The notes under the pieces are model-generated. The model had not been told where the DNA came from. It ran no database searches and was given only the letters and a program-made list of their open reading frames with translations. A program made the translations under genes and the position numbers. Of a stretch of DNA of 37,053 bases, positions 27,721 to 36,535 are shown in pieces. Position 1 is the stretch's first letter. Every line of letters begins with the position of its first letter. This DNA is from Thermoanaerobaculales bacterium (GTDB taxonomy: Bacteria > Acidobacteriota > Thermoanaerobaculia > Thermoanaerobaculales > Sulfomarinibacteraceae): the NCBI GenBank assembly GCA_025456385.1, contig JALOKS010000006.1, forward strand, positions 1 through 37,053. The letters run 5' to 3'.

Positions 27721-29052
27721 GTGCCAACGACCCCGACCGCGATCCTGACCCGCTGCAAGAAGGAGAACGTCCACTTCATGCGGCTCCAGTTCACGGACAT
27801 CGACGGCGTCATCAAGAACGTCGAGGTCCCGTCGAGCCAGTTCGAGAAGGCGCTCGACGGCCAGATCATGTTTGACGGCTCCTCCATTCAGGGCTTCACC
27901 CGCATCGAGGAGTCGGACATGCTGCTGGTGCCCGACCTCGAGACCTTCCAGGTCTTCCCCTGGGTGACGGATCACGGCCGGGTCGGACGCCTGGTGTGCG
28001 ACATCGCCAACCCCGACGGCTCGATCTTCGCCGGCTGCCCGCGCAGCGCGTTGAAGCGCGCGGTCGAGCGGGCGCGGCGCATGGGCTACCGGATGATGGC
28101 GGGGCCGGAGGCCGAGTTCTTCCTCTTCCAGCGCAACCACAACGGCGAGGCCCTGGCCGCGACCCACGACTCGGGCGGCTACTTCGACCTCAGCCCGCGC
28201 GACCTCGGCGAGGAGGCGCGGCGCGAGATCACGCTCGCGCTCGAGGCGATGGGCTTCGAGGTCGAGGCGGCCCACCACGAGGTGGCGCCCGGCCAGCACG
28301 AGATCGACTTCAAGTACGGCGACGCCGTCGACACCGCCGACGCGATCGTCACCTTCCGCTTCGTGGTCAAGAAGGTCGCCCTGATGTACGGCCTGCACGC
28401 GACCTTCATGCCGAAACCGCTGGCCGGGGTCAACGGCTCCGGCATGCACACCCACCAGTCGCTGTTCTCGTCCAAGGGCAGGAATGTCTTCCACGACCCG
28501 AAGGGCCCGTGGGAGCTGTCGGCCGTCGCCCGCGCCTACATCGGCGGCCTGCTCGACCACGCGCGGGCCTTCGTCGCGGTGACCAACCCCCTGGTCAACT
28601 CCTACAAGCGTCTGGTGCCGGGCTACGAGGCGCCGGTCAACGTCGCCTGGTCGGAGAAGAACCGCTCGCCGATGATCCGGGTGCCGGCGCGGCGAGGGAT
28701 CGGCACCCGCTGCGAGGTCCGCGTCCCCGACCCCTCCTGCAACCCCTACCTGGCCTTCGCCGTGATGCTGGCCTCCGGTCTCGACGGCATCGAGCGCGGC
28801 CTCGACTGCGGCGAGCCGGTCAACCGCAACATCTTCGACATGAGCGAGCGCGAGAAGCGGCGGCTCAAGATCGTGCAGCTGCCGGCGAGCCTCGACGAGG
28901 CGCTCAACTTCCTCGAGAGGGACGGCGTGATGCGCGAGGCCCTCGGCGAGCACATCTTCGAGCACTTCCTCCACAACAAGCGCACCGAGTGGGCCGAGTA
29001 CATCAAGGAAATCCACGACTGGGAGCTCGACCGCTACCTCGACCGCTACTGA
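27721..29052 (+). CDS. glnA: Glutamine synthetase type I
   Basis: VHFMRLQFTDIDGVIKNVEVP...MFDGSSIQGFTRIEESDMLL...GPEAEFFLF...NGSGMHTHQSL...NRSPMIRVPARRGIGTRCEVRVPDPSCNPYLAFAVML. Confidence 0.97.
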   Translation: MPTTPTAILTRCKKENVHFMRLQFTDIDGVIKNVEVPSSQFEKALDGQIMFDGSSIQGFTRIEESDMLLVPDLETFQVFPWVTDHGRVGRLVCDIANPDGSIFAGCPRSALKRAVERARRMGYRMMAGPEAEFFLFQRNHNGEALAATHDSGGYFDLSPRDLGEEARREITLALEAMGFEVEAAHHEVAPGQHEIDFKYGDAVDTADAIVTFRFVVKKVALMYGLHATFMPKPLAGVNGSGMHTHQSLFSSKGRNVFHDPKGPWELSAVARAYIGGLLDHARAFVAVTNPLVNSYKRLVPGYEAPVNVAWSEKNRSPMIRVPARRGIGTRCEVRVPDPSCNPYLAFAVMLASGLDGIERGLDCGEPVNRNIFDMSEREKRRLKIVQLPASLDEALNFLERDGVMREALGEHIFEHFLHNKRTEWAEYIKEIHDWELDRYLDRY

Positions 29053-29102: not shown

Positions 29103-30506
29103 GTGAACACGGTCCTCGTGATCACCGACGACGAGGCCCGGCGGAAGGTCATCGAGGCGCAGCTCCTCAACCATGACCTCAAGCTGGTCGCCGCCGGCTC
29201 GCTCGAGCGCGGCCTGGCAGTGGTCGAGGAGGGTCACGCGAGCCTGGTGCTCGCCGTCCTGCCGCTGGCCGGAACCTCGGCAGTCGGGGCGCTGCGGGCG
29301 ATCCACGCCCGCGACCCGCGGCTGCCGGTGGTCGTGCTCACCGCCGCCGCCTCGACCGAGGAGGCCATCGAGACCACCAAGGCCGGCGCCTTCGACTACC
29401 TGCTGCTGCCGCTCGAAGAGCGGGAGCTGCTCACCGCGGTCGGGCACGGATTCGAGGCCGGCCGCCTGATGCGGTCGCCGGTGTCGCTCGACCAGGAGAG
29501 CGAGACCTGGTCGGGGGACGCCCTCATCGGGCGCTCGCGGCCGATGCAGGAGATCTACAAGGCGATCGGCCGCGTCGCCCCGACCGACTCGACGGTGCTG
29601 ATTCGGGGCGAGTCCGGGACCGGCAAGGAGCTGGTCGCGCGCGCGATCTACCAGCACTCGGCGCGCGCCGCGCGGCCCTTCGTGGTCGTCAACTGCGTGG
29701 CCATCCCGGAGACCCTGCTCGAGAGCGAGCTCTTCGGCTACGAGCGCGGCGCTTTCACCGGCGCCGTCGGAGCCAGGATCGGGAAGGTCAAGCAGGCCGA
29801 CGGCGGCACCCTCTTCCTCGACGAGATCGGCGACATGCCGCTCGCCATCCAGGCCAAGCTCCTGCGCCTGCTCGAGGACCGCAGCATCGAGCCGATCGGC
29901 GGCCGGCGGCCGATCGCTGTCGACGCGCGGATCATCGCCGCCACCAACCGCGACCTCGAGGCGGCGATCGACGAGGGGCGGTTCCGCAAGGACCTCTTCT
30001 ATCGCCTGAGCGTCGTCCCGATCACCCTGCCGCCGCTGCGCGAACGCCTCGACGACCTGCCGCTGCTGTGCGACTACTTCCTGCGCCGGCTGACCACCGA
30101 GCTCGGGATCCGCAACCCCGGTCTGACGCCGGACGCCTACCGGCTGCTGGCGAGCCACCCCTGGGCGGGCAACGTCCGCGAGCTCGCCAACGCCATGGAA
30201 CAGAGCCTGATCTTCAGCCGCGGGCGTCAGATCGACGCCGAAGCGGTCGGCGCGCTGGTGCTCACGCCGTCCAGGGGCCGCGCGGCCGCCCTCGCGGCCG
30301 GCGACGAGGCCCTGCGGCGCTGGGTGCACCAGTCACTCGCCTTCGGCCGCGAGGGCCTGCTGCCGGCGATCACCGAGCACGTCAGCGAGCGGGTGATCCG
30401 CGAGGTCCTCGCGATCACCGCCGGGAACCGGGTGCGCGCCGCCCGCCTGCTCGGCATCTCCCGTCCCACCCTGCTCGCCCGGATCAAAAAGTACGGGCTG
30501 GAGTGA
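29103..30506 (+). CDS. Sigma-54-dependent transcriptional activator (receiver-like, AAA+, Fis HTH)
   Basis: AAA+ with GESGTGKELVARAIYQHS, GAFTGA, GGTLFLDEIGDMP, NVRELANAMEQ; C-terminal GNRVRAARLLGISRPTLLARIKKYGLE; N-terminal receiver-like fold. Confidence 0.95.
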   Translation: MNTVLVITDDEARRKVIEAQLLNHDLKLVAAGSLERGLAVVEEGHASLVLAVLPLAGTSAVGALRAIHARDPRLPVVVLTAAASTEEAIETTKAGAFDYLLLPLEERELLTAVGHGFEAGRLMRSPVSLDQESETWSGDALIGRSRPMQEIYKAIGRVAPTDSTVLIRGESGTGKELVARAIYQHSARAARPFVVVNCVAIPETLLESELFGYERGAFTGAVGARIGKVKQADGGTLFLDEIGDMPLAIQAKLLRLLEDRSIEPIGGRRPIAVDARIIAATNRDLEAAIDEGRFRKDLFYRLSVVPITLPPLRERLDDLPLLCDYFLRRLTTELGIRNPGLTPDAYRLLASHPWAGNVRELANAMEQSLIFSRGRQIDAEAVGALVLTPSRGRAAALAAGDEALRRWVHQSLAFGREGLLPAITEHVSERVIREVLAITAGNRVRAARLLGISRPTLLARIKKYGLE

Positions 30507-30630: not shown

Positions 30631-32034
30631 ATGCCAATCGTCTCGATTTCCCAAGGCAGCTACAGCGGCTCGAAGCAGCTCGCGGACGCGCTCAGCAAGA
30701 GGCTCGGTTTCAAGGTCGTCAGGCTCGAGGACGCGGTCGCCGCAGCCAAGCGCTACGGCATCTCCGAGGAGGAGATGTACCGCGGCCTCGACATGCCGGC
30801 CAACTTCTTCGAGCGCTTCACCCAGCGCAAGGAGCGCTACATCCTCGCCATGCAGGCGACGCTCGGCGGGCTCTTCGCCGACGGCAACGGCATCTACTGC
30901 GGGCTCGTCGGTCAGTTCATCTTCCACGGCCTCTGCGGCGTCTTCAAGGTCCGGCTGGTGGCGCCGCTCGACTTCCGGATCAACGCCACCATCGCCAGCC
31001 TCAGGCTCTCCCACGAGGAGGCCGTGCGCTACATCCGCGACGCCGACGAGCGGCGGGCCAAGTGGGGACGGCAGATGTTCAACGCCGACCTCAACGATCC
31101 CGACCTCTACGACCTGGTCGTCAACCTCGAGCACATGAACATCGAGACCGCCGCCGACATGATCACCGGCATCATCAAGCGCAAGGAGTTCCCCGAGGAC
31201 TGCTACCGCCAGTTCCAGAGCTTCGCCCTCGAGAAGCGAGTGCGGGCGGCGTTGCGCTTCAACTCGCCCTACGAGTCCGACAGCGTCCAGATCCAGGCCG
31301 CCGACGGCGTCGTCACGCTGTCGGGGGGGGCCTCCTTCGAGGGGTCGCGCGCGGCGATCGTCGACTTCGTGAGCCGCATCCGGGGCGTCCGCAAGGTCGT
31401 GACCGACGCCGGCGAGGTCGCCTCGGTGGACTCCACCCTCGATCTCGACCTCGGCGTCTCGACCCGGGACACCACGGCGCGCGACGTCATGCTGCCCCCC
31501 GACGGCTACCCGCACTGCACCCTGTCGTGCACGATCCGCGACGCGGTGGTGGCCCTGAGCGCCTCGGCGGTGAAGCTCGAGGACGGCTACACCATGGTGC
31601 CGCGCTACGTGCTGATCCTCGACGACGAGCGGCGGGAGCTGCGCGGCATCGTCAGCCGCCGCGAGCTCCTGAAGGGCCTCATCCCCCACCTCCAGCGGGA
31701 CAAGGAGTCGGAGGCCCAGATCCGCAAGCTGGTGCCCTTCGCCGGCCAGGTGCCGACTGACCTGCTCATCCGCTGGACCTCGCTCTTCACCCCCGCCGCG
31801 CTGGAGGCGGCGCGGCGCCCGGTGAGCTCGATCATGGTGCCCATCCGGGGCACCGTCCAGGTCGGCGACTCCCTGTCGACCGTCATCTCGACCATGCTCA
31901 CCCACGGCGTCGACCTCGTGCCGGTTCTCGACGGCCAGCGGGTCGCCGGCGTGGTGCTGATGACCAACATCTTCGACATCGTCGCCCAGTTCGTGATGGA
32001 GCACGGCGGGACCGGCCCGCGGGGGCGCGGCTGA
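30631..32034 (+). CDS. Cytidylate kinase-like - BON - CBS pair fusion protein
   Basis: N-term MPIVSISQGSYSGSKQLADALSKRLGFKVV...YDLVVNLEHMNIETAADMI (cytidylate kinase-like), middle KRVRAALRFNSPYESDSVQIQAADGVVTLSGGASFEGSRAAIVDFVSRIRGVRKV (BON), C-term two CBS motifs. Confidence 0.82.
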   Translation: MPIVSISQGSYSGSKQLADALSKRLGFKVVRLEDAVAAAKRYGISEEEMYRGLDMPANFFERFTQRKERYILAMQATLGGLFADGNGIYCGLVGQFIFHGLCGVFKVRLVAPLDFRINATIASLRLSHEEAVRYIRDADERRAKWGRQMFNADLNDPDLYDLVVNLEHMNIETAADMITGIIKRKEFPEDCYRQFQSFALEKRVRAALRFNSPYESDSVQIQAADGVVTLSGGASFEGSRAAIVDFVSRIRGVRKVVTDAGEVASVDSTLDLDLGVSTRDTTARDVMLPPDGYPHCTLSCTIRDAVVALSASAVKLEDGYTMVPRYVLILDDERRELRGIVSRRELLKGLIPHLQRDKESEAQIRKLVPFAGQVPTDLLIRWTSLFTPAALEAARRPVSSIMVPIRGTVQVGDSLSTVISTMLTHGVDLVPVLDGQRVAGVVLMTNIFDIVAQFVMEHGGTGPRGRG

Positions 32035-33584
32035 TGGCCGACGCAGTCGCCGCCGGTAAGCAGCGCCGCCCGCTCCTCTTCCGCCCCCGACCGCACTCCG
32101 AGATCGACTGGAAGCGGATCTTCTTCCTGAGCCTCGGGCTGGGGCTGTTCTTCGCCGTCCATCTCTCCCCGCCCTGGCCGGTCGCCGTCGACCCCATGGG
32201 GGAGGAGTTCGTGCTCAGCGCCCAGGGCAAGGCGGCACTCGGGCTCTTCCTGCTCGCCGCCGTGTGGTGGGTCTTCGAGGTGCTGCCGATCGGCGTCACC
32301 GCGATCTCCATCGGCGTCGTCCAGGCCCTGTTCCTGATCCGGCCGGACCTCGTGGTGGCGGGCGGGGGCGACCCGATCGACGGCGCCGAGCTCGCCTTCA
32401 AGGAGTTCATGAACCCCTCGGTGTGGTTCATCTTCGGCTCGATCGTCATCGGCATGGTCTTCACCAAGACCGGGCTCACCAAGCGCCTCGCCTACATGAT
32501 GCTGATGCTGGTCGGCGAGCGGACCAGCCGGATCTACCTCGGTTGCTTCGTCATGACCGCCGCCCTGACGCACGTGATGGCCCACACCGCGGTCGCCGCG
32601 ACGGTCTTCCCGCTGCTGGTCGCCATCTACCGCCTCTACGAGGAGGGCGACACGCCCACCCGCTTCGGCAAGGGGCTCTTCATGGGCATGGCCTACATCG
32701 CCGGCGCCGGCTCCATCATCACCCTGCTCGGCGCCGCCCGCGGCGCGGTCGCGATCGGCTTCTACAAGGAGATCACCGGCAAGGAGGTCAGCTTCTTCGG
32801 TTTCAGCTACTACCTCTTCCCCCTCGGCTGGGTGATGGTGTTCGCGCTCTGGGCCCTGATCATGGTCCTCTACCGGCCGGAGCGCGCGGTCATACCCGGC
32901 CTGCGCGAGCGCGCGCGCGACCTCTACACCCGCCTCGGGCCGATCTCGGCCAAGGAGCTGCAGGCCGCCGTCATCGTCGTCGCCGCCGTCGCCCTGATGA
33001 GCCTTCGCTCCTTCGTGCCGGCGCTCGCCGCCATCGACAAGACCGCGATCATCCTCGTCGCGACGGTGCTGTTCTTCATCCTCAAGATCCTCGAGATCGG
33101 CGACCTCGAGGACGTTCCCTGGAACATCGTCCTCCTCTTCGGCGGCGCCATGAGCCTCGGCTACTGCCTGGTGCTGACCGGCGCCGCCGACTGGCTCGCC
33201 ATCAACACCGCCTCCGCGCTCGAGGCCGCCCCGGCCCTGGTCTTCATCCTCGGCATGGCCCTTTTCGTGCTCATCATGACCAACCTGATCATGAACGTCG
33301 CCGCGATCGCCATCTGCCTGCCGGTGGCGCTCAAGATGGCGCCCTACCTCGGCGTCGGCGGCGACGTGATCTTCTTCAGCGCCCTGGTCACCGCCGGCAT
33401 GCCCTTCCTGCTGCTGGTGGGCGCCGCGCCCAACGCCATCGCCTACGAGAGCAAGCAGTTCAGCTCGGGCGAGTTCTTCCGCGCCGGAGTGCCGGCGAGC
33501 GTGATACTGATGGTCGTGCTCGCGCTCTTCGTGACAGTTGTCTGGCCGCTGATGGGCATGGAGGTGATGGTCCCGAGGCCCTGA
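32034..33584 (+). CDS. SLC13/DASS-family anion permease
   Basis: About 12 hydrophobic segments; WWVFEVLPIGVTAI, NPSVWFIFGSIVIGMVFTKTGL, FGGAMSLGYCLVLTGAADWLA typical of the DASS family; start overlaps the upstream stop (ATGA-type). Confidence 0.88.
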   Translation: MADAVAAGKQRRPLLFRPRPHSEIDWKRIFFLSLGLGLFFAVHLSPPWPVAVDPMGEEFVLSAQGKAALGLFLLAAVWWVFEVLPIGVTAISIGVVQALFLIRPDLVVAGGGDPIDGAELAFKEFMNPSVWFIFGSIVIGMVFTKTGLTKRLAYMMLMLVGERTSRIYLGCFVMTAALTHVMAHTAVAATVFPLLVAIYRLYEEGDTPTRFGKGLFMGMAYIAGAGSIITLLGAARGAVAIGFYKEITGKEVSFFGFSYYLFPLGWVMVFALWALIMVLYRPERAVIPGLRERARDLYTRLGPISAKELQAAVIVVAAVALMSLRSFVPALAAIDKTAIILVATVLFFILKILEIGDLEDVPWNIVLLFGGAMSLGYCLVLTGAADWLAINTASALEAAPALVFILGMALFVLIMTNLIMNVAAIAICLPVALKMAPYLGVGGDVIFFSALVTAGMPFLLLVGAAPNAIAYESKQFSSGEFFRAGVPASVILMVVLALFVTVVWPLMGMEVMVPRP

Positions 33585-33621
33585 CCGCGTTCGTGCCGCG
33601 GCTCATGACGGGGAGGTGCCG

Positions 33622-34245
33622 ATGCCGACTCAGAAGGTGATCGAAGGCCACCGCCGGTTCCGTGAGAAGTTCGAGTCCGAGAACGAGGTCTTCGCCCGCC
33701 TTGCCGAGGAGGGCCAGAACCCGAAGGTGCTGTGGATCGGCTGCTCGGACTCGCGGGTCATCCCGGAGCTCATCACCGGCGCCGACCCTGGCGAGCTCTT
33801 CAACGTGCGCAACATCGCCAACGTCGTGCCGCCGGCCTCGGGCGAGGCCTGCTCCACCGGGGCGGCGATCGAGTACGCGGTCCTCCATCTCCGGGTCGAC
33901 CACGTCGTCGTCTGCGGCCACACCGGCTGCGGCGGCATCAAGGCCCTCGAGGCACCCCCCTCGCCCGAGGCCGAGCCGCACATCGCCGGCTGGCTCGGGC
34001 TCGCCGCGCCGGCGCGGCAGCAGGTGCTCGCGCGCGGCACGGCACCCGAGGAGGTCTACCTCGAGACCATCAGGGCCAACGTGCTGCTGCAGTGTGGGAA
34101 CCTGCGCACCTACCCCTGCGTCCGGGAGCACGAGCAGGCCGGCGACCTCAGCGTCCACGCCTGGCTCTACGACCTCCGCTCCGGCGTGATCGAGGAGTAC
34201 CGGCTGGCCAGCGGCACGTGGGAGAGCGTCGCGCACTCCCGCTGA
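33622..34245 (+). CDS. Beta-class carbonic anhydrase
   Basis: VLWIGCSDSRVIPELITGADPGELFNVRNIANVVPP...VDHVVVCGHTGCGGIKAL (CxDSR and HxxC zinc motifs). Confidence 0.95.
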   Translation: MPTQKVIEGHRRFREKFESENEVFARLAEEGQNPKVLWIGCSDSRVIPELITGADPGELFNVRNIANVVPPASGEACSTGAAIEYAVLHLRVDHVVVCGHTGCGGIKALEAPPSPEAEPHIAGWLGLAAPARQQVLARGTAPEEVYLETIRANVLLQCGNLRTYPCVREHEQAGDLSVHAWLYDLRSGVIEEYRLASGTWESVAHSR

Positions 34246-34483: not shown

Positions 34484-35089
34484 ATGCTGATCTCGAAGGA
34501 CACCTCGATCCCGTTGTCCCGGCGCTTCCGGCTGCCGGCGGTGGTGGCGGCGCTGGCGGTGATCTCCGTGGCGCCGATGGTGATCACCGGCGCCATCAAC
34601 TTGCAGCAGTTCCGGGCCGCCTACAAGGACAAGGTCCGCGACCACATCGGCGAGCTCGTGCAGCGCCACGCCGAAACCGTCGACGCCTTCGTCGAGGACC
34701 GGCTCTCCGACATCCGGGTCGTCGCCCGCGAGCACGAGCGCGCGGAGCTCGAAGACCCGGCGTCCCTCCGTCAGCTCCTCAACGTGCTCCGCGAGGAGTA
34801 CCACGGAGCCTTCGTCGACCTCGGTCTGGTGACGCGGGACGGCGTGCAGATCGCCTACGCCGGCCCCTTCAACCTGACGATGGCCGACTACTCGTCCGCC
34901 GAGTGGTTCGAGAAGGCGCGGCTCCGAGAGCACTACGTCTCGGATGTCTTCGCCGGCCTGCGCGGCAGCCCGCACTTCATCGTCACCGCCGCCCGGTCGC
35001 AGGGCGACGAGCGCTACTTCGTGAAGGCGACCATCGACTTCGAGGCCTTCAACAACCTGGTCGGCAACATCCGTCGTCGAGGGTCGTGA
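34484..35089 (+). CDS. N-terminal fragment of a histidine kinase: TM plus Cache-type extracytoplasmic sensor
   Basis: LPAVVAALAVISVAPMVITGAINLQQFRAAYKDKVRDHIGELVQRHAETVDAFVEDRLSDIRVVA...ADYSSAEWFEKARLREHYVSDVFAGLRGSPHFIVTA; ends ...GNIRRRGS*. Confidence 0.8.
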   Translation: MLISKDTSIPLSRRFRLPAVVAALAVISVAPMVITGAINLQQFRAAYKDKVRDHIGELVQRHAETVDAFVEDRLSDIRVVAREHERAELEDPASLRQLLNVLREEYHGAFVDLGLVTRDGVQIAYAGPFNLTMADYSSAEWFEKARLREHYVSDVFAGLRGSPHFIVTAARSQGDERYFVKATIDFEAFNNLVGNIRRRGS

Positions 35090-35090
35090 C

Positions 35091-36094
<1,004 letters not shown>

Positions 36095-36098
<4 letters not shown>

Positions 36099-36535
36099 TC
36101 GAACTGTCGGTGCTGCTGGTTGACGATGAGGAGGCGTTCGTCGACGCGCTGGCGCGGCGCCTCGGCAAGCGAGGCTTCCGGGTCGCCACGGCGACCAGTG
36201 GGGACGGGGCCCTGCAGGCCCTCGACGAGGGCGGCGCGACGAGGACCGATGTCGTGGTCCTCGACGTCAAGATGCCCGGTCTGGACGGGCTCGAGACGCT
36301 GGCCCTGATCAAGGAGCGCCACCCCCTGGTCGAGGTGATCATGCTGACCGGTCACGCGACGGTCGAGTCCGCCATCGAGGGCATGAAGCGCGGCGCCTTC
36401 GACTACCTGATGAAGCCGTCCGACATGGACATCCTGATCGCGAAGCTCAGCCAGGCCGGCCAGAAGAAGCGCGACCACGAGACCAAGATCCTCGAGGCTC
36501 GCGCCACCCTGATCGCGCTCCGCCGCGGGGACTGA
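36095..36535 (+). CDS. Stand-alone response regulator receiver protein
   Basis: VLLVDDEEAFVDALARRLGKRGF...DVVVLDVKMPGLDG...VIMLTGHAT...GAFDYLMKP. Confidence 0.92.

What the first reader, a model, noticed from the sequence alone, without database searches (positions are those of the whole stretch)
30631..32034. Unusual fusion: cytidylate-kinase-like domain + BON + two CBS motifs
The N-terminus looks like the cytidylate-kinase-like family, but the phosphate-binding segment reads SISQGSYSGSKQLADAL rather than a canonical GxxxxGK[ST] loop, so it may be a nucleotide sensor rather than an active kinase. It is joined to a BON domain and a CBS pair, and its stop overlaps the start of the permease gene. 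This looks like a dedicated regulatory subunit.
Basis: partly seen in the sequence, partly recalled or inferred. Interest (0 to 1): 0.6.

Follow-up and report, generated by a model that had tools for sequence, protein, structure and literature searches.

The report
Kinase-like sensor fused to anion-transporter regulator
A sediment bacterium with sulfate-reduction genes carries a three-part protein, made of a kinase-shaped domain that has probably lost its activity, a BON domain and a nucleotide-sensing CBS pair, translated together with an anion (probably sulfate) transporter, and its relatives occur almost only in genomes with the sulfate-reduction gene aprA, so it is probably a sensor that tunes sulfate uptake.

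Summary
In detail: ORF 30631-32034 (467 aa) is Cytidylate_kin2 (PF13189) + BON + a CBS pair, and its TGA overlaps the ATG of an SLC13/DASS permease by one base. Profile hits, a good AlphaFold2 model and Foldseek agree. The missing Walker lysine is a trait of the whole PF13189 family, not special to this protein. The window is from the genus of Ca. Sulfomarinibacter (Acidobacteriota), and its genome has aprA and dsrAB. The order fusion-SLC13-beta-carbonic anhydrase-(NtrC)-Cache histidine kinase-receivers recurs in relatives. The fusion itself is found in six genomes of two genera. In a distant family the same SLC13 (62% identical) lies beside SulP and a CK2-receiver fusion, and CBS-only homologues lie beside receiver-SLC13 fusions. 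Across 297 Acidobacteriota genomes, CK2-BON proteins co-occur with aprA (17 of 23 versus 3 of 274, p=6e-20), and some sit directly upstream of aprBA. The best reading is a nucleotide-sensing (AMP/APS/ATP) regulatory partner of a sulfate-type DASS transporter, the counterpart of the DASS+Cache-kinase+CBS clusters described in Desulfobacteraceae. The substrate and ligand are inferred. The carbonic anhydrase leaves bicarbonate uptake or exchange as a live rival. A new variant of a known kind, interest about 0.6.

The parts
30631..32034 (+). CK2-BON-CBS fusion protein, 467 aa (the finding)
   Evidence: ORF and translation; Pfam; AF2 model and Foldseek; five orthologues 54-60% identical
30637..31131 (+). 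Cytidylate_kin2 (PF13189) domain, residues 3-167; P-loop-equivalent segment at 30643-30693 lacks the Walker lysine
   Evidence: Pfam E 3e-30; solved relatives 3fdi/3hdt; residue table
31225..31404 (+). BON domain, residues 199-258
   Evidence: Pfam E 8.7e-8; family profile matches OsmY E 2.6e-15
31477..31692 (+). CBS motif 1, about residues 283-354 (GIVSRRE motif)
   Evidence: two CBS stretches in Pfam; AF2 and Foldseek CBS-pair matches; solo homologues; boundaries taken from the model, approximate
31825..31983 (+). CBS motif 2, residues 399-451
   Evidence: Pfam best stretch
32034..33584 (+). SLC13/DASS permease, 516 aa, start overlaps the fusion's stop; binding-loop motifs AHT / GAARG / MNV / APN instead of SNT / GTPPN / SNT / PPN
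   Evidence: PF00939 E 1.5e-49; TIGR00785 198.3 bits against cut-off 198.6; PDB DASS relatives; motif comparison
33616..34245 (+). beta-carbonic anhydrase, 209 aa, with CSDSR and CGHTGC metal/active-site motifs
   Evidence: PF00484 E 5.9e-47; PDB beta-CAs; among 40 relatives the close homologue occurs only in the seven genomes with this locus
29103..30506 (+). NtrC-type sigma-54 response regulator, likely regulator of the locus
   Evidence: Pfam; homologue 61% identical lies just after the carbonic anhydrase in L025, and in L130
34484..35089 (+). N-terminal part of the Cache (dCache_1) sensor histidine kinase; frame broken
   Evidence: weak Pfam dCache_1 match on the N-terminal ORF, 33.5 bits under the cut-off of 45, strong in the L025 homologue; 63% identical to the single-ORF kinase of L025; start taken from the homologues
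35091..36098 (+). C-terminal part of the same histidine kinase (HisKA, HATPase_c)
36095..36535 (+). receiver-domain protein 1
   Evidence: PF00072; conserved order in L025, L129, L131
36539..36931 (+). receiver-domain protein 2
   Evidence: PF00072

Best explanation
The protein is a cytoplasmic sensor-regulator of the permease it is translationally coupled to, in a locus for inorganic-anion (most likely sulfate) uptake in a dissimilatory sulfur bacterium. Shown: the three domains, the overlap, the conserved locus with carbonic anhydrase and a Cache two-component system, recurrence of CK2-type and CBS-type modules beside SLC13, SulP and TauE transporters, and tight co-occurrence with aprA. Inferred: the kinase-like domain no longer phosphorylates but still binds a nucleotide or nucleotide-like ligand (AMP, APS or ATP are the natural candidates), the CBS pair binds adenine nucleotides, the BON domain attaches the protein to the membrane or transporter, and ligand binding opens or throttles the DASS permease so that uptake matches sulfate activation and energy state. 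The Cache kinase and response regulators set expression from an external signal.
For: Domains and fold (Foldseek hits include AMP/ADP/ATP-bound CBS proteins and an APS kinase with AMP-PNP and APS). Overlap conserved in six of six. Fusion-SLC13-CA seen intact in G000, G002, G004 and G006, with matching SLC13-CA contig starts in G003 and G014. Independent linkage: SLC13 62% identical next to SulP and a CK2-receiver fusion in G150/G284; SulP-CK2REC-HK in G003, G004, G006, G014; CBS-solo next to SulP (L037, L038) and between a Cache HK and a receiver-SLC13 fusion in G150, G284, G141. Transporter genes within two genes of CK2 genes 35/174 against 5/176 farther away, p=1.6e-7. aprA association p=6e-20 over 297 genomes; CBS-part homologues in six genomes, all aprA+. 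The window genome has aprA and dsrAB; Ca. Sulfomarinibacter encodes the full sulfate-reduction pathway (PMC8528874). Desulfobacteraceae DASS sulfate loci carry Cache kinases and CBS proteins (PMC11887813).
Against: No transport, binding or interaction data. The carbonic anhydrase has no obvious role in sulfate uptake. The permease has lost the SNT motifs that build the Na+/substrate sites of known DASS proteins, so neither substrate nor coupling ion can be read off. CBS2 lacks the usual phosphate- and ribose-contact residues (GVVLMTN). Genome counts are not phylogenetically independent. Six CK2-BON genomes lack a detected aprA (two of them weak hits, one a 67%-complete genome). Many short CK2-BON genes sit by TauE or MFS genes, so the module is not specific to SLC13.
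Confidence: 0.5

Rival explanations
1. The locus handles inorganic carbon: the SLC13 protein carries bicarbonate (or exchanges bicarbonate for sulfate), the beta-carbonic anhydrase feeds or drains it, and the fusion protein is an adenine-nucleotide sensor of carbon status, working like cyanobacterial SbtB on SbtA.
For: A beta-CA with intact motifs follows the permease, and among 40 relatives its close form (61-69% identical) occurs only in the seven genomes that carry this locus. The permease lacks carboxylate-type motifs. SbtB is a nucleotide-binding regulator of the SbtA bicarbonate transporter (PMC8352866, PMC10991534; titles and abstracts only).
Against: The CA is absent beside the same SLC13 in G284. 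CK2 and CBS modules follow aprA; carbon-fixation genes were not tested. The linked SulP is closest in the PDB to plant sulfate transporter 4.1 (2.4e-93) rather than BicA (1.4e-31), although BicA is held only as a shorter chain.
Confidence: 0.2
2. The fusion protein acts on the two-component system rather than on the transporter: it modulates the Cache kinase or its receivers and so gene expression.
For: CBS-solo homologues lie between a Cache kinase and receivers, and other CK2 proteins are fused to a receiver domain.
Against: In the window and orthologues the gene is translationally coupled to the permease. In G150, G284 and G141 the receiver is fused to the SLC13 transporter itself, which points to control of transport.
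Confidence: 0.18
3. The N-terminal domain is an active small-molecule or nucleotide kinase with an unusual P-loop, and the other domains regulate it.
For: Lid-like and core residues R116, D139, R142, W145, Y160 and D161 are strongly conserved across 53 members; the fold is that of NMP/shikimate/APS kinases.
Against: The Walker lysine position is Gly or Ser in nearly all members. The fusion clade also has L92 and Q95 where most other members have polar residues and His. The family has no characterised catalytic member among solved structures.
Confidence: 0.1

Closest known systems
DASS-type sulfate-uptake cluster of Desulfobacteraceae (Desulfosarcina variabilis Dvar_38230-38430; PMC11887813)
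   Same: DASS permeases, Cache sensor kinases, response regulators and CBS-domain proteins in one locus of sulfate-reducing bacteria; CBS proteins proposed there to sense APS or energy state.
   Different: A different phylum; here the CBS pair is fused to CK2 and BON, a beta-carbonic anhydrase is present, and the response regulators are receiver-only plus NtrC-type instead of WalR-type. The Desulfosarcina proteins could not be compared directly with these tools.
Cytidylate_kin2 family PF13189 (structures 3fdi, 3hdt)
   Same: Sequence family and fold, including the GSGG-type loop without Walker lysine.
   Different: Those structures are of uncharacterised proteins of about 200 aa without BON or CBS; here the domain is joined to BON and CBS and coupled to a transporter.
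SbtB-SbtA (PII-like nucleotide sensor and bicarbonate transporter)
   Same: A small nucleotide-sensing protein encoded with the anion transporter it is thought to control.
   Different: SbtB is a PII-fold protein; this one shows no PII match and is built from CK2, BON and CBS.
CBS-regulated transporters (MgtE; AcuB/CBSX/DarB-type CBS pairs)
   Same: A cytoplasmic CBS pair as the sensing module; Foldseek matches MgtE, CBSX2-AMP, AcuB-AMP/ADP/ATP, DarB-c-di-AMP.
   Different: Here it is a separate, coupled polypeptide with two further domains.
DASS/SLC13 transporters VcINDY, NaCT, NaDC, NaS1
   Same: Pfam Na_sulph_symp and overall alignment over the whole length.
   Different: SNT and GTPPN binding motifs replaced by AHT, GAARG and MNV, invariant in the complete close relatives.

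Membership tests
PF13189 Cytidylate kinase-like family | Score above the curated Pfam cut-off over the full model | tested here: met
   106 bits against 28, model positions 1-175 of 176
(d)CMP kinase, active NMP kinase | Walker A lysine in the P-loop | tested here: not met
   S14 at the lysine position, G in nearly all relatives; TIGR02173 23 bits against cut-off 102
(d)CMP kinase, active NMP kinase | Phosphotransfer activity | not testable with these tools
   needs enzyme assay
BON domain | Score above Pfam cut-off | tested here: met
   32.8 bits against 27; OsmY match by family profile
CBS-pair (Bateman module) regulators | Two CBS motifs forming a pair | tested here: met
   two stretches above threshold; Foldseek CBS pairs with target TM about 0.7-0.8
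CBS-pair (Bateman module) regulators | Adenine-nucleotide contact motif G-h-h-S/T-x-x-D | tested here: inconclusive
   CBS1 GIVSRRE is close, CBS2 GVVLMTN is not
DASS/SLC13 transporter | Pfam Na_sulph_symp above cut-off | tested here: met
   PF00939 169.8 bits against 27
DASS/SLC13 transporter | NCBIfam TIGR00785 (dass) above cut-off | tested here: not met
   198.3 bits against 198.6, just under
DASS/SLC13 transporter | SNT motifs of the Na+/substrate sites | tested here: not met
   AHT and MNV
Desulfobacteraceae-type DASS sulfate cluster | DASS + Cache sensor kinase + CBS protein in one locus | tested here: met
Desulfobacteraceae-type DASS sulfate cluster | WalR-type response regulators | tested here: not met
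   receiver-only proteins and an NtrC-type regulator
Desulfobacteraceae-type DASS sulfate cluster | Sulfate transport | not testable with these tools
   needs uptake assay
PII-like SbtB | PII fold / family match | tested here: not met
   no PII family in Pfam/NCBIfam or among the Foldseek hits listed

The most novel reading that the evidence does not exclude
CK2-BON proteins are a new, previously unnamed family of sensors of APS/AMP (the substrate and product of APS reductase) derived from a nucleotide kinase fold, spread through Acidobacteriota with dissimilatory APS metabolism. By fusion or adjacency to CBS, receiver and transporter modules they couple the cell's sulfur-activation state to sulfate, sulfite and possibly bicarbonate transport.
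Probability: 0.25. Interest if true: 0.82.

Novelty: new variant of a known kind. Interest (0 to 1): 0.6.

Why it matters
How sulfate reducers match uptake of sulfate, whose activation costs ATP, to their energy state is open; a recent paper (PMC11887813) could only speculate that CBS proteins sense APS or energy. This protein and its family give a concrete candidate sensor with a named transporter partner, a strong genomic tie to aprA, and small soluble domains that can be tested directly for ligands.

Tried and rejected
A first AlphaFold2 run with six sequences was too poor to use (mean pLDDT 51); 53 sequences fixed it. In the 59-sequence alignment the CBS-solo rows were misaligned onto the CK2 part, so they were dropped for the model. 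The first genome-contig scan with the single protein found nothing; the alignment scan found four Acidobacteriota loci. Plasmid searches gave only distant hits. Literature searches for the cytidylate-kinase-like family with CBS, BON or sulfate found nothing relevant. Considered and rejected: an ORF artefact (orthologues in five further genomes, coding-type third-position GC); a chance neighbour of the permease (conserved overlap and independent linkage). The SLC13 beside CK2-BON in L030/L034 is not taken as the same transporter (it has normal SNT/GTPPN motifs, and lies by a secA gene); it is included in the raw neighbour counts. The viral fold library gave only general P-loop kinases.

Full report
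Observation. The stop TGA shares its A with the ATG of the SLC13 permease. In five orthologues (54-60% identical) the overlap is 8 bases. An AlphaFold2 model with 53 sequences has mean pLDDT 78.8. Foldseek matches the N-terminus to 3fdi and 3hdt, two uncharacterised PF13189 proteins, and to P-loop kinases including an APS kinase, and the C-terminus to CBS pairs with AMP, ADP, ATP or c-di-AMP.

P-loop. The quoted segment lacks a canonical Walker A, but so do the solved members of PF13189 (GSGGH, GSGGR) and nearly all 53 relatives gathered here, which have Gly where the lysine should be. So loss of the lysine is a property of the family. The fusion clade differs further: L92 and Q95 replace mostly polar residues and His, and in this copy R8 is Q. 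Conserved R116, D139, W145, Y160 and D161 suggest that a ligand pocket is kept. This fits a binding domain more than an enzyme, but it is an inference.

Host. Orthologous loci carry the names Candidatus Sulfomarinibacter kjeldsenii and Thermoanaerobaculales bacterium. The window genome is of the same genus as the former. It has aprA over the curated cut-off and dsrA, and Ca. Sulfomarinibacter was reported to encode a complete sulfate-reduction pathway (PMC8528874).

Locus. Around the fusion lie glnA, an NtrC-type regulator, the SLC13 permease, a beta-carbonic anhydrase with intact motifs, a Cache histidine kinase and two receivers. The order fusion-SLC13-CA is seen intact in G000, G002, G004 and G006. 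In G003 and G014 the contig breaks inside SLC13, and another contig starts inside SLC13 and continues with CA and the two-component genes; G017 shows the same downstream part. In G004, and in G002 as far as its contig reaches, the two-component genes do not follow the CA. After the receivers come a TauE-type transporter and a second SLC13 in G006 and G014. glnA precedes the fusion in all six. The triple fusion itself was found only in six genomes of two genera of this order.

Independent linkage. In two genomes of a distant family (G150, G284) the closest SLC13 (62% identical, same AHT/GAARG/MNV/APN motifs) lies beside SulP and a protein in which CK2 is fused to a receiver domain, with a Cache-type kinase next to it. 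In G003, G004, G006 and G014 the order is SulP, CK2-receiver, histidine kinase, receivers. Homologues of only the CBS half lie beside SulP in G009 and G011, and in G150, G284 and G141 between a Cache kinase and a protein that is itself a receiver-SLC13 fusion. Shorter CK2-BON proteins lie by TauE, MFS or PEP-synthase-like genes, and directly upstream of aprBA in G009, G011, G012 and G022. Within two genes of CK2 genes, 35 of 174 genes are TauE, SLC13, SulP or MFS transporters, against 5 of 176 four or more genes away (p=1.6e-7). The loci come from related genomes, so the p-value is optimistic.

Co-occurrence. In the same sample of 297 Acidobacteriota genomes CK2-BON proteins (E<=1e-20) occur in 23 and aprA in 20, both in 17 (p=5.6e-20), over seven families. 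Among 40 close relatives it is 17 of 18 against 2 of 22 (p=4e-8). The CBS-half homologues occur in six of the 297, all aprA-positive. Relatedness inflates the p-values, but the spread over seven families makes a pure lineage effect unlikely.

Mechanism. The most economical reading is a sensor-regulator of sulfate-type anion uptake. A closely similar gene set (DASS permeases, Cache kinases, CBS proteins) was described in Desulfobacteraceae as the sulfate-uptake system, with the speculation that CBS proteins report APS or energy state (PMC11887813). Our locus differs by the CK2-BON part, the carbonic anhydrase and the response-regulator type. The permease substrate cannot be read from sequence: its SNT and GTPPN motifs are replaced, with an arginine in the loop (GAARG), and the receiver-fused SLC13s also have an arginine there (GGRN). 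The adjacent carbonic anhydrase keeps bicarbonate transport, or sulfate/bicarbonate exchange, alive as a rival. SulP from the sister loci matches a plant sulfate transporter far better than BicA among solved structures, which leans to sulfate.

Verdict. Real, conserved and functionally placed, with a plausible and directly testable role. It is a new variant of a known kind (CBS-type regulation of DASS sulfate uptake), and the CK2-BON family behind it appears undescribed in the literature searched. Ligand, physical interaction and substrate remain unshown.

Noticed in passing
window 34484-36098: The Cache histidine kinase is broken: two ORFs (ending 35089, starting 35091) replace the single 577-598 aa kinase of L025, L129, L130 and L131, with about 50 residues of the Cache domain missing and the frame shifted; a real lesion or an assembly error.
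   Followed up: partly
L118:6016-8064, L119:5304-7475, L121:5061-7097: Receiver domain fused to the N-terminus of an SLC13 transporter, next to a Cache kinase and a CBS protein: a transporter apparently controlled directly by phosphorelay.
   Followed up: partly
L100:6625-7836, L101:13616-14830, L132:5372-6679, L134:6422-7717, L135:6985-8235, L102:4307-5596: Cytidylate_kin2 domain fused to a receiver domain; beside a SulP permease and a histidine kinase in all but L102, which is from the window's own genome (short contig, Cache kinase only).
   Followed up: partly
L029:3309-7048, L032:325-4155, L035:5901-9840, L036:5988-9973: A CK2-BON gene directly upstream of aprBA in the same direction in four genomes.
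   Followed up: partly
L034:277-6361, L031:6745-13173, L075:6141-10561: Roughly 855-aa proteins with PPDK_N and PEP-utiliser domains recur with TauE transporters, Alph_Pro_TM membrane proteins and CK2-BON genes; function unknown.
   Followed up: no
L028:3805-5346, L077:7888-9363, L083:8318-9925, L085:1052-2527, L091:8234-9706: A DHA2-type MFS efflux gene follows CK2-BON in the same direction in several genomes.
   Followed up: no
L104:2950-5770: An SLC13/CitMHS transporter with a TrkA_C domain directly before a CK2 gene in G004.
   Followed up: no
window 27721-29052: Glutamine synthetase (glnA) lies upstream of the fusion gene in all six genomes; reason unknown.
   Followed up: no
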